From: Mytilus galloprovincialis
Lineage: Eukaryota; Mollusca; Bivalvia; Mytilida; Mytilidae
Direction: 5' to 3'
Assembly (NCBI RefSeq): GCF_965363235.1
Contig: NC_134849.1
Span: 66,855,122-66,919,121 of the forward strand
DNA length: 64,000 nucleotides
The notes below the pieces were generated by a model. It was not told the DNA's origin, searched no databases, and worked only from the letters and a program-made list of their open reading frames with translations. A program made the position numbers and the translations under genes. Below, one piece after another: positions 1,138 to 50,000 of the stretch (within the stretch, counting starts at the first letter, position 1; each line of letters starts with the position of its first letter).

Positions 1138-4100
1138 GCATGTAATGTTTTTATTTGCCTTTTAACTCAATTAAGGAATGGCTTTAATATTTTTTCTGTC
1201 TATAAAGAAATAACATAGATAATTTGGTGCACACTGAATAACGCGTGTAGCGGGTTATTTAACAGTGTGCACCGCATTTTTAATGTTATTTCGATATTCC
1301 ATTTTAAAATGTAGAAAACCATGAAAAAAGGTTGATGACGTCATGGTCACATGGCTAAATGATTTGTATGGGCTGATAACAAAACTACGTCAGCAGCCAA
1401 TCAAAATACGCGTTACATCCAAAATTGAATTATGTAAAATATTAAACATGTATATGAGTGAAAAAAACGTTGACATATTATTAGTTCATACGTGTCATAG
1501 ATCATTTGTTAGGTTATATATGAATTTAGCTCTTCTGTTTCAGTTTTCTGTCTATCGGTTGGTCTTTTATTAACTTATATCACCTATATTATCTAATTCA
1601 TCAAATTACAAAGATTAACGAATGGTGCTTACAAAGGATAAATTAATTTGATTTTACTTCTTATAAAGTCGTTTTATTTTATTTAAACAGCAACTATTAG
1701 ATTTTGAATATCGAGTTTATTATTCGACATCTTACATTTAGTCGGTCGGTGGTTATATTTTATGTAGAAAATGTTCAAAATAGGCCAGAGTATAACTAGA
1801 TCTAAGCGAACATAAAACCTTTTAGTTACAAAAAGACATTTATCCAGTGAGTGCAAAAAGGTTAATTGTTGTGCATCACTTTTTACAGTACATTTATTCT
1901 TCGATGACGCTGTAATTCGGTCAGATAGTTCAACTTTAGTTGTCAACAAATATGTTAAGAAGTTTTTACAATCTATAAAAAAGCAAGAAGGTAAGCAACT
2001 AAGAATCATTTTTTAAGTTTAATCAAGAATTCAAATATCTAATGGAGAGTTATGAATCTTCTACTTTTTACACTTCACTTTCACAATCGTATCAAGAAAA
2101 ATTTTTCTTCCTTAATCATTGTTAATTAAATGGTCTTTTGAAAACTCGATCGTTTAAAGACTTTTCTGGTACACAAATGGATAGTTTGCTACATCCAGTT
2201 AGTAATTTTGGATCACAATGCTCTTCAACTTCGTACTTTATTTAGCCTTTTTTGTTTTCTTTTTTTTTTTAAATTTTTTTGGAATTGAGCGTCACTGATG
2301 AGTCTTTTATAGACGAAACGCGCGTCTGACGTATATATTAAATTTAGTCCTGGTATCTATATATATATATACAACTCCTCTAAACATCAACCCAACAATG
2401 TTAGATCTGTAAATTTGCTTTTGCAAATTTTTTGTTCTTCCCTCGTTGGGATTCGAATCCATGCTACTGAGATATCGTGACACTGAATCGCCTACACTGT
2501 AGCCGTCCCGCTAGACCACACGACCACCTGGGCTTCACAATAATAAAGCCTTCGGTGACACTAAATCGCCTACACTGTAGCCGTCCCGCTAGACCACACG
2601 ACCACCTGGGCTTCACAATAATAAAGCCTTCGGTGGCCTTGTGTTACTTTTTTAGAATCGATCGTCACTTATGAGTCTTTTATAGACGAAACGCGCGTCT
2701 GACGTATATATTAAATTTAGTCCTGGTATCTATATATATATACAACTCGTCTAAACATCAACCCAACAATGTTAGATCTGTAAATTTGCTTTTGCAAATT
2801 TTTTGTTCTTCCCTCGCTGGGATTCGAATCCATGCTACTGAGATATCGTGACACTAAATCGCCTACACTGTAGCCGTCCCGCTAGACCACACGCCCACCT
2901 GGGCTTCACAATAATAAAGCCTTCGGTGGCCGTGTGTTACCTTTCCTCGTCAGTTTTAATCTAGCGGCGTACTTCAGTACATGATATACAAGGCATGGAG
3001 ATGTTATTGGTACAGATCAGCTCAATTATCTATAGTAAAGGATCCTACAAATTAATGCAAGACACAGTCGAAGAAAATAATTATATTAATAAGTACGTCT
3101 GAGTCAGTGACAACTCTACAACATATATATATATATATATATACGTTTCGGCGGTTAACACTAGGCATTCATTTGGGCAATAACTATGCTCCTTTACTAA
3201 CAGATTTATTCATGTAGTGCTATGAATCTCAATTCATGACCAATCACTTTGTGAATAATGTAAACTCATCGATCCTTTAAACAAACTTATAAGAAAAAGT
3301 TATCTTACCAATGTTGTAATTTGATCTTTGAATATAGTTTACATTGGTAAAAAAAAAACGATTTAGTCATGAACAAATTAAAAGATAACTAAATTTATAT
3401 TCTTTTCTTTCACGTTCATTTCTATATAGATGTTAACTCTTAACCATCCTACCATGCCTACTGCCTGTCTAAACATTTTAAGTTTTGTATTGGACAATTT
3501 ATGTCTTCTTTGACTATCCATGACGTTTAATACTAAATCCCTGGGATGTGTTCTAGTTGATTTTAGTCACTCACTAATGCATTATTTACTATTATTAATT
3601 AATTTTTGCTTTTAACTAGCTTTCAGTAGATGTAAGTTTTCTCAAATCCTACTTTCAAGTTAATTTGTACTGTTGAAACAAAATGTTTACTTTTTTCTTT
3701 AGTTATGTCGTCTCTCAATTTTTGATATATACCAGTATATATATTTTTGGTATCACTATAAATGTTCATTTCTGTTCTCGTACTATGGACAACAAAATTA
3801 TTTATTTTGTAAAAAAAATTCATGTTATCATTTACAGTAACATGAGTAATACATTATTATATTTTGTTTAATATTATAGTTGTCTTTCTAAAATTGAATT
3901 ATTTTTTTATTATATATGTGTCATACATCAAAGTGATTTGTTCAGTATATACTAGTATTGACTTGTTATGTGCTGATATGCAGTTGATTGAGTTAAGCAA
4001 TTTCAATTGATATTATATAGTGTGTTTTTCTATGTTGTGATGAAACACTATTCTTTTATGTAAGGGTGAAGGTTAGAACCTATTAAACCGTTTACACCCA

Positions 4101-47000: not shown

Positions 47001-50000
47001 ACTAAATTATCTATTCTTCTTACTAGTACACTTGGTACAATCAAAAACCTGATAATATATTGTTCAAATAAGGCCTTCGAAAATATTGGAATTAATTACT
47101 TTTGGAGTGTCAAAAACTTGTTGGAAGTACTTGATAAATTGCATGCTTTTATTGGTGATTTTGAATCTGTTCAAAGATTTGATTTTTCTACCCTATATAG
47201 CACATTTCCTCACATTCTCATTAAGAAAAAATTCACACACCTAATTAAATGGGCATTTAAAAAGTCAGAATGTGAATATATATGTTCAAACTCTTTTAGG
47301 TCATTTTTTAGTAGCAATAAACAAAAAAACTATGCCAATTGGACATGCTTTGATACTATACATGTATCTGCCCTTAAATTTTTACTAGATAACTTTTTTG
47401 TTCGCTTTGGAGATTCCGTATATCGTCAGATTATCGGAATTCCAACGGGGACTAACTGTGCACCACTTATTGCAGACCTGTTTCTGTATTGCTATGAGTT
47501 ACAATTGATGACAAAAATCAGCAAAGACCCATCAAAACAACATCTGATACACAAATTTAATAATACTTTTAGATATTTGGATAATATTTTGGCTCTCAAT
47601 AATGACGACTTCAGTATGTATACTACAGAAATTTATCCTGTTGAACTTACTTTAAATAAAGCTAGCACTAACAATGACCACTGCCCTTTCCTCGATCTTG
47701 ATATCTATATCATTAACGGAAAGCTTAATACTAAAATTTATGATAAAAGAGATGATTTTTCATTTCCTATCGTTAATTATCCATTTTTAGATGGTGACGT
47801 TCCCTTGTCGCCATCTTACGGTGTTTATATATCTCAACTTGTACGATTCGCTCGTGTATGTAACAACGTTTAGATTTTAACAAAAGAAATTTATGTTTTA
47901 CTGAAAAATTATTACAACAAGGGTTTTCAATATCACAAACTAGTCAAAACATTTACTAAATTTTATCATCGGTATACATGGTATAAGGACATCATTCGTA
48001 AATAAAGCTAAACATACAGACTTCTTATACGTTCAGGTATTTCACATACAATATTTTATGGAAATATTCTTTATCAAGCACAAAAATGTCAGTATTCACC
48101 TCAGAAGCTAACAAAACCCTTAAATAGACTTATTAAGAAGGGATATACTAGTAGTTACAATACTGTTGTCAGGTCATTAAAGATTGCATATTTTGGCGTT
48201 AATATTGATTCACTTATAGGGTCTTTGCATCGGAACTAAACAGATTTATTTAAAAACCAGTTGTTGGCATGACATGGGTTATGTTCTTCTCATATATGTT
48301 ATGATGGTATGATACTAAACCCCTCACGGGGAGGATTGTGCCTGATATTCATATGATGAAGACATAATTTTTCAATCAGTTTAATTTAAGTCTGGAGCTG
48401 GCATGTCAGTTAACTGCTAGATGTCTGATGTTATTTATTTATTATTGTCATTTTGTTTATTTTCTTTGGTTACATCTTCTGACATCAGACTCGGACTTCT
48501 CTTGAACTGAATTTTAATGTGCGTATTTTTATGCGTTTACTTTTCTGCATTGGCTAGAGGTATAGCTATATAGGGGGAGGGTTGAGATCTCACAAACATG
48601 TTTAACCCCACCGCATTTTTGCGCCTGTCCCAAGTCAGGAACCTCTGGCCTTTGTTAGTCTTGCATTATTTTAACTTTTAGTTGCTTTTGTACAATTTGG
48701 AGTTTAGTATGGCGTTCATTATCACTGAACTAGTATATATTTATTTAGGGGCCAGCTGAAGGACGCCTCCGGATGCGGGAATTTCTCGTTGCATTGAAGA
48801 CCTGTTAGTAACCTTCTGCTGTTGTCTGCTCTATGGTCGGGTTGTTGTCTCTTTGGCACATTCCCCATTTCCATTCTCAATTTTACATTTGTATATATTT
48901 CTTTTTTTTACTGACGTTAGTCTGTGCAGACATGATTTATCATTGATATGGTCATATCTATAAATTTACTGTTTACAAAAAATATTGTATTTTGGAAATA
49001 TTAAGACTTTTCTACACCAGGAATAGATTACATTAGCTATATTTGGCAAACATTTTAGGAATTTAATTCCTCAATTCTTTTTAAGTTCGTATTTTATTTG
49101 GCCTTTTCTTTTAACTTTTTTTGGATTCGAGCGTCACTGATGAGTCTTTAGTAGACGTAACGCGCGTCTGGCGTAAATAAAAAAAATAATCCTGGTATCC
49201 AGATGAGGTTATTTAACCTATAATCAGAAATACCAATTTAATTAATTAAAGATCAAGTCAAATATCGTAGATAAAAAAACAGAAGACTTTTGTTTAGTAA
49301 TCTCTTTACATGCTATTGCGATTTAAGAATACTCTGCATACAGATATATGTATCAGAAATCATTGCCATTTATTGTTCAGCTATTCACACAGTCATGATT
49401 TGCAATAATAAAAACCACACACTAATTTCCTAATTTACAGTAATCTAAAACTAAACTTACCTTTGCGTGGTGCCATGTTTTTATGTCAGTACTAAAATAA
49501 TAACAGTTACTTCCTAATCTGAACCAATTCAGTGGGCATGTGTTCTGTGCTGGAAAATATAAAGTTAAGATTCCTCAAAAAAGTCAGTTAGTCCGCTGAC
49601 TAACCACATGATATATTCCGGAGACAATGTAAACAAATTATTATTTGTGTTGGAATTTAAGATCAACGTTGTATCTGTTTATCCTGCCGGAGCCACTGAG
49701 ATCATCCCCAGCTTTTAGTGGGTTTCGTGTTGCTCAGTCTTTAGTTTTCCATGTTGTTTCATGTATACTATTATTTGTCTGTTTGTCTTTTTTAATTTTT
49801 AGCCTTGGCGTTGTCAGTTTATTTTCGATTTATGAGTTTGACTGTACCTCTGGTGTCTTTCGCTCCTCTTTTATCATTGCCTGTCTGAGATATTTTGACG
49901 TTATTGCAGTATACATCATTTTGGAATATTGTTAGAAGCTAATCTGAAGAAAAGTAATATAAAGTGATATACGTTACTGACAAAGCAAAAAATATATATG

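What the first reader, a model, noticed from the sequence alone, without database searches (positions are those of the whole stretch)
2281..2940. Tandem unit that joins a hammerhead ribozyme with an antisense tRNA-like head
A ~373-bp unit repeats once. It holds a core-intact hammerhead on the plus strand and an A-box/B-box tRNA-like segment on the minus strand. Tandem hammerhead units of a few hundred bases are the hallmark of retrozymes, and tRNA-like heads the hallmark of SINEs; the two together on opposite strands would be a mosaic I do not know as a described family. Transcripts from the two promoters would be antisense to each other.
Basis: partly seen in the sequence, partly recalled or inferred. 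Interest (0 to 1): 0.85.

Follow-up and report, generated by a model that had tools for sequence, protein, structure and literature searches.

The report
Ribozyme and tRNA-like repeats, chance neighbours
Two unrelated, very common repeats of this genome, one with a self-cutting RNA and one with a tRNA-like promoter, lie next to each other at a single spot and were copied once together, so this looks like ordinary repeat debris and not a new kind of mobile element.

Summary
The repeat is real: two copies 371-373 bp apart, 96.5% identical over 283 columns. Copy 1 holds a type I hammerhead with intact core; copy 2 has a changed core. Pol III-like boxes lie on the minus strand, but no tRNA model accepts them.

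The genome shows two separate families. Family A is a retrozyme, unit about 364 bp, like the published mussel one; it supplies only about 90 bp here. Family B is a tRNA-box repeat, unit about 441 bp. They meet tail to tail at a (TA)n tract. Exact probes find 5,634 B ends and 15,585 A-type hammerhead cores, so about one such adjacency is expected by chance (rough). Outer flanks continue A and B, and the copies share rare variants: one junction was duplicated in place.

Hammerheads in SINE-like elements are already described in schistosomes. Family B deserves a separate look.

The parts
2221..2360 (+). Family A (retrozyme) fragment, copy 1: 5' part 2221-2252 and HHR part 2272-2360
   Evidence: matches the 364-bp unit of the C11 array at unit positions 333-364 and 1-89
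2289..2332 (+). Type I hammerhead, copy 1, core intact (CTGATGA / GAAA)
   Evidence: Rfam RF00163, 33.4 bits against gathering 34, E 2.3e-6
2358..2371 (.). (TA)n tract at the A/B junction, copy 1
2366..2651 (-). Family B (tRNA-box repeat), copy 1, cut short at 2651 and carrying an internal 78-bp duplication
2477..2635 (.). 78-bp tandem duplication (2 copies, 98% matches) that doubles the A box
2449..2518 (-). B box (2449-2460) and A box (2508-2518) of copy 1; extra A box at 2586-2596
2635..2659 (+). B-to-A junction of the duplication; B matches to 2651 and A from 2646, the overlap is part of a T run
   Evidence: this junction pattern occurs once in the genome
2646..2733 (+). Family A fragment, copy 2
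2662..2705 (+). Hammerhead copy 2, core changed (CTTATGA, change at 2670)
   Evidence: 21.7 bits, below gathering
2731..2742 (.). (TA)n tract at the A/B junction, copy 2
2737..3123 (-). Family B body, copy 2, full length (A box 2879-2889, B box 2820-2831)
   Evidence: 94% identical to a unit of the B array L009 over positions 3-388
3124..3143 (.). (TA)10 on the far side of B

Best explanation
This is a nested-repeat locus, not an element. A 5'-truncated retrozyme copy (family A, plus strand) carried or abutted a (TA)n tract. A member of the tRNA-box family B (minus strand), whose sampled copies mostly sit in (TA)n, inserted there, tail to tail with A. Later, one in-place DNA duplication with a short T-run match copied the stretch from just upstream of the hammerhead to the middle of B, giving two units 371-373 bp apart; a further 78-bp duplication doubled the A box in copy 1. 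Shown here: two separate families, the (TA)n at the junction, uniqueness of the junction patterns, natural flanks on both sides, shared rare variants. Inferred: the order of events and target priming of B in (TA)n.
For: Search with the 373-bp unit: 59 matches listed from 40 scored of 4,113 candidates; apart from the two window copies none begins before query base 73, so none includes the hammerhead. Aligning the unit to all loci then held: matches of hammerhead-type loci end at 2373 or earlier on the hammerhead side, and matches of B-type loci begin at 2353 or later. Search across the junction: 45 matches listed from 40 scored of 1,970 candidates; only the two window copies span query 1-140; one other (C8, 88%) reaches back to query base 32 through AT-rich sequence but not to the GAAA core, and its locus shows B tails only (L090). 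HHR-to-spacer pattern: 2 in the genome, both here. B-to-A junction pattern: 1 in the genome, here. Exact-probe counts: B end 5,634, intact HHR core 15,585; expected adjacencies in the tested slot about 0.98, observed one independent locus. Left flank continues A and right flank continues B. The two copies share variants that are rare in up to 92 B copies (1/92, 2/92, 2/92, 1/92, 0/77) and in A copies (2/29), so one junction was duplicated. Six other loci show (TA)n at the same place in what looks like family A, none of the 6 with a B tail within 300 bp.
Against: The short 3' end normal for family A (unit positions about 90 to 101-107) is missing on both sides of B, so the insertion was not clean or A lost its end otherwise; unexplained. 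Hammerhead and B sequences do come near each other elsewhere: L105 (a different hammerhead element inside a B copy, with an apparent 6-bp direct repeat read by eye), L006 (hammerhead match about 900 bp from B) and L055 (weak, 75-82% B-like matches several hundred bases from an A hammerhead). None shares this junction. The patterns allow no mismatch outside their gaps and ambiguity letters, so decayed copies would be missed; the similarity searches score only 40 candidates each. The chance estimate assumes even placement and uses a longer B probe. Assembly error at the tandem repeat was not tested.
Confidence: 0.93

Rival explanations
1. A true mosaic mobile element: plus-strand RNA of the composite unit cleaves at its hammerheads, circularises, is reverse transcribed and inserted as a dimer, while the minus-strand boxes drive an antisense RNA.
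For: Tandem spacing 371-373 lies in the 350-390 bp range reported for mussel retrozymes (PMC7229834 section 14); hammerhead 1 has an intact core.
Against: Junction patterns present only here and no other match spans the junction among those scored. Second hammerhead core is changed. Outer flanks are leftover A and B sequence rather than a new target site. The unit ends at arbitrary points inside A and B.
Confidence: 0.02
2. The pair arose in one step by template switching between an A RNA and a B RNA during reverse transcription.
For: A and B share a short TACAAC stretch near the junction (alignment); missing 3' end of A.
Against: A and B lie on opposite strands, tail to tail, which a simple switch within one cDNA does not give; (TA)n on both sides of B fits an insertion into (TA)n.
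Confidence: 0.05

Closest known systems
Metazoan non-LTR retrozymes of Mytilus galloprovincialis (PMC7229834; abstract, passages and sections 13, 14, 17 seen)
   Same: Family A: type I hammerhead, tandem units of 358-365 bp in the array examined against about 350-390 bp reported, thousands of copies.
[quoted passage not shown]
   Same: Hammerhead inside SINE-like, high-copy repeats; Sm-alpha-like repeats were first predicted as tRNA-Gln genes.
   Different: There it is an amplified family; here one locus, with hammerhead and Pol III-like boxes on opposite strands.
Helenus, tRNA-bearing TRIM LTR elements (PMC10886601; abstract, passages, part 1 of the results and the discussion seen), listed for Mytilus
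   Same: Family B has A and B boxes inside a repeated block of about 390 bp with a short spacer, and forms tandem arrays.
   Different: B has one fixed end, mostly in (TA)n in the biased sample, and scattered ends on the other side, not two fixed LTR ends.
tRNA-derived SINEs
   Same: Internal Pol III-like boxes, fixed 3' end, variable 5' ends, high copy number.
   Different: Units also occur in multimers and 5' ends fall all round the unit; no tRNA model accepts the head; no partner LINE identified.

Membership tests
Metazoan retrozyme | type I hammerhead with intact core | tested here: met
   copy 1 only: 33.4 bits, just under gathering 34; copy 2 not, core changed
Metazoan retrozyme | hammerhead-bearing retrozyme unit repeated in tandem | tested here: not met
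   met for family A at C11 (358-365 bp units; 7 hammerhead matches in L031); in the window only about 90 bp of each 371-373 bp period is retrozyme
Metazoan retrozyme | circular RNA of unit length | not testable with these tools
   no RNA data
tRNA-derived SINE (family B) | internal A and B boxes | tested here: met
   both strings in the window; A-box consensus, recalled, at 8 regularly spaced places in the B array L009, though the motif alone is not above chance there (9 found, 5.25 expected)
tRNA-derived SINE (family B) | recognisable tRNA fold | tested here: not met
   ARAGORN default none; Rfam none
tRNA-derived SINE (family B) | fixed 3' end, 5' ends at the Pol III start or truncated | tested here: inconclusive
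   3' end fixed in the sampled copies; 5' ends scattered, 5 of 38 at unit positions 262-272 (P 0.0024 under even placement), but that stretch was chosen after seeing the ends and two of the five (L100, L101) look like one duplicated locus
tRNA-derived SINE (family B) | 3' tail shared with a partner LINE | not tested
   no partner sought
Helenus (TRIMp3) | two LTRs with fixed outer ends | tested here: not met
   one end scattered
Helenus (TRIMp3) | 4-bp target duplications | tested here: inconclusive
   flanks printed; in (TA)n a duplication cannot be read
Helenus (TRIMp3) | primer-binding site and polypurine tract | not tested
   53-bp spacer seen but not matched to tRNA ends
Hammerhead-bearing SINE (Sm-alpha type) | both modules amplified together as one family | tested here: not met
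   junction patterns only in this window

The most novel reading that the evidence does not exclude
The composite is chance, but family B may be a retrozyme-like retroelement without a hammerhead: a tRNA-box repeat whose insertions are partial or multiple turns of one 441-bp unit, all starting at the same 3' point in (TA)n, as if copied from a circular or multimeric RNA primed in TA microsatellites. A similar fixed-3'-end, turn-around anatomy is seen in family A.
Probability: 0.2. Interest if true: 0.5.

Novelty: new member of a known kind. Interest (0 to 1): 0.15.

Why it matters
As reported, the locus matters little: nested repeats plus one local duplication are ordinary in repeat-rich genomes. 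Its use is as a caution that two very common repeats will make convincing mosaics by chance. If family B does copy itself from circular or multimeric RNA without a ribozyme, that would bear on how retrozymes and SINEs prime and insert, but this is not shown here.

Tried and rejected
Considered and rejected: (1) mosaic family: junction found only here. (2) Family B as a Helenus LTR element: I first cut the array unit into a 388-bp 'LTR' and a 53-bp spacer, but the ends did not behave as LTR ends. (3) Other Rfam RNAs: AgvB, MIR1878, LSU_trypano_mito and Plastid-psbl-rps4 matches are far below their gathering scores and are taken as chance. (4) Folding of the 51-nt hammerheads alone: the minimum-energy folds are not the hammerhead form and are no more stable than shuffles (z -0.86 and 0.79); the covariance model is the evidence used. 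(5) Literature: no paper of the held library contains any of five short strings of A and B; searches for a (TA)n-inserting molluscan SINE showed nothing relevant in the listings (20 of 40 papers listed; 1 of 1). Only listings were seen, and only the open library is covered, so B may be named in Repbase or in closed papers.

Badly made patterns that carry no weight: required an intact core, which copy 2 lacks, so it could not match the window itself; one T too many. One search is the corrected form. One search failed with a script error after writing a scratch file and was redone. Coordinates of minus-strand window matches printed are counted from the other end.

Full report
Observation. The region holds a direct repeat with copies 371-373 bp apart, identical at 96.5% of 283 columns, with 8 mismatches and one 2-nt gap. 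A 78-bp duplication lies inside the first copy at 2477-2635. The first hammerhead (2289-2332) fits Rfam Hammerhead_1 with 33.4 bits, just under the gathering score of 34, E 2.3e-6 in an 850-base search and 1.7e-4 in the whole window. The second (2662-2705) scores 21.7 bits, is not listed at E up to 1 in the whole window, and has a G-to-T change in the CTGATGA core at 2670. At gathering thresholds the window has no Rfam match. The minus strand has A-box strings at 2508, 2586 and 2879 and B-box strings at 2449 and 2820. ARAGORN finds no tRNA with default settings.

Two families. The whole genome that holds the window (1.38 Gb, 331 contigs, unnamed) could be searched. With the 373-bp unit, 59 matches were listed from 40 scored of 4,113 candidates; apart from the two window copies none begins before query base 73, that is window 2353, so none holds the hammerhead. 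A search with the hammerhead part alone (2270-2350) listed 40 matches from 40 scored of 2,016 candidates, 30 of them cut out as loci. When the unit was aligned to the loci held at that point, hammerhead-side matches ended at 2373 or earlier, most near 2360, and matches of the B loci began at 2353 or later. Two loci showed both kinds of match hundreds of bases apart: L006, and L055 with weak B-like matches. Family A forms an array of 358-365 bp units on contig C11 with 7 hammerhead matches of 32.5 bits in L031, also just under gathering. This fits the description of the Mytilus galloprovincialis retrozyme: about 5,000 type I hammerheads, repeats of about 350-390 bp, abundant circular RNA (PMC7229834; abstract, passages and sections 13, 14, 17 seen). 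No published sequence was compared. Family B forms an array of 441-449 bp units, without any Rfam ribozyme match at E up to 0.5 in L009.

Junction. The pattern hammerhead core, 45-75 bases, ACATCAACCCAACAATG occurs twice in the genome, both in this window. A similarity search across the junction lists 45 matches from 40 scored of 1,970 candidates; only the two window copies cover the whole query, and one other on C8 reaches back through AT-rich sequence without reaching the GAAA core. A relaxed pattern finds copy 2 and one other place, L105, where a different hammerhead element lies inside a B copy, with B sequence on both sides (printed): an independent event with another junction. The B-to-A junction pattern between the units occurs once, here. 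Exact probes give 5,634 B ends and 15,585 intact A-type hammerhead cores. Placing them evenly gives about 0.98 expected adjacencies of this orientation and distance; one independent locus is seen. The estimate is rough, since the B probe is longer than the spacer. In 60 B loci of 130,460 bases, a strict hammerhead pattern is found 0 times.

How it formed. Left of copy 1 the sequence continues as family A (2221-2252), and right of copy 2 it continues as family B to 3123, followed by (TA)10. Nothing marks a new insertion site of the composite. The two copies share 10 departures from the majority base of other copies: six rare (1/92, 2/92, 2/92, 1/92 and 0/77 in B; 2/29 in A) and four more common (39/92, 43/92, 4/37, 8/37). 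One junction was therefore duplicated. At the unit boundary the B match runs to 2651 and the A match starts at 2646, an overlap in a T run, as in an in-place duplication by short homology. The A/B contact itself is a (TA)n tract. The string TCCTGGTATCTATATATATA occurs 8 times in the genome, 2 of them here; at the other 6 a GATGAGTTT sequence typical of family A resumes after the (TA)n, and none of the 6 has a B tail within 300 bp. Three of these six (L110, L111, L114) have a decayed or no hammerhead upstream, and two (L108, L109) lie about 2 kb apart and resemble each other. Family B in our sample sits mostly in (TA)n: of 38 elements with both ends inside 37 loci, 33 have (TA)n at the 3' side and 17 at the 5' side. 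This sample is biased, because the query that chose it contained the (TA)n tract. Unexplained: the last 12-18 bases of family A (most copies end at unit positions 101-107) are missing here.

Mechanism at this locus. No mobile mechanism is needed for the composite. Plus-strand RNA, if made, could be cut at the first hammerhead only, since the second has a changed core residue. That such a change abolishes cleavage is recalled from general hammerhead biochemistry, not tested. Minus-strand Pol III transcription is possible from the boxes but not shown.

Family B. In B sense, the sampled insertions end at one 3' point, GTTGTATATA. The 5' ends fall all round the 441-bp unit. Of 38 elements, 14 have more than one aligned segment (10 with two, 1 with three, 3 with four), which I read as multimers or rearranged copies. 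Five of 38 5' ends fall in an 11-base stretch about 16 bases upstream of the A box (P 0.0024 under even placement), but the stretch was chosen after seeing earlier ends and two of the five appear to be one duplicated locus (L100, L101 share flanks), so the cluster is suggestive only. B fails the Helenus picture of two fixed LTR ends (PMC10886601; abstract, passages, part 1 of the results and the discussion seen). It may be an undescribed SINE-like family or one named in databases that I could not search.

Known comparisons. Hammerheads in SINE-like elements are described in schistosomes (PMC2770079, passages seen). A review says that metazoan retrozymes could be regarded as a novel family of SINEs (PMC7761336, passages seen).

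Verdict. The sequence features are real. The composite element is not supported: it is chance adjacency at a TA microsatellite followed by one local duplication.

Noticed in passing
L009:1743-5504: Nine tandem units of family B (441-449 bp) on contig C1; units resemble each other in groups (for example units 2 and 6, 3 and 7), as after local re-duplication.
   Followed up: partly
L105, centre of locus: A different hammerhead element inserted inside a family B copy, with an apparent 6-bp direct repeat (TTTGTA) on both sides, read by eye.
   Followed up: partly
window 9892, 15150, 21013, 24420, 36277, 49154: Six further hammerhead-like GACGAAACGCGCGTC sites with 1-2 mismatches; with the two of the finding, 8 in 64 kb against 0.19 expected.
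   Followed up: no
genome G000: 15,585 exact intact hammerhead cores of this type, about three times the roughly 5,000 type I hammerheads reported for Mytilus galloprovincialis in PMC7229834; assembly and species may differ.
   Followed up: no
flanks of L019, L020, L025, L070, L071, L072, L089, L093: Several family B copies lie beside short recurring sequences resembling TTTAGACTCGT or TCTAGGCACT next to (TA)n, perhaps tails of other elements using the same target; seen by eye.
   Followed up: no
window 48291-48355 (+): SECIS_1 match of 33.8 bits, just under its gathering score of 35.
   Followed up: no
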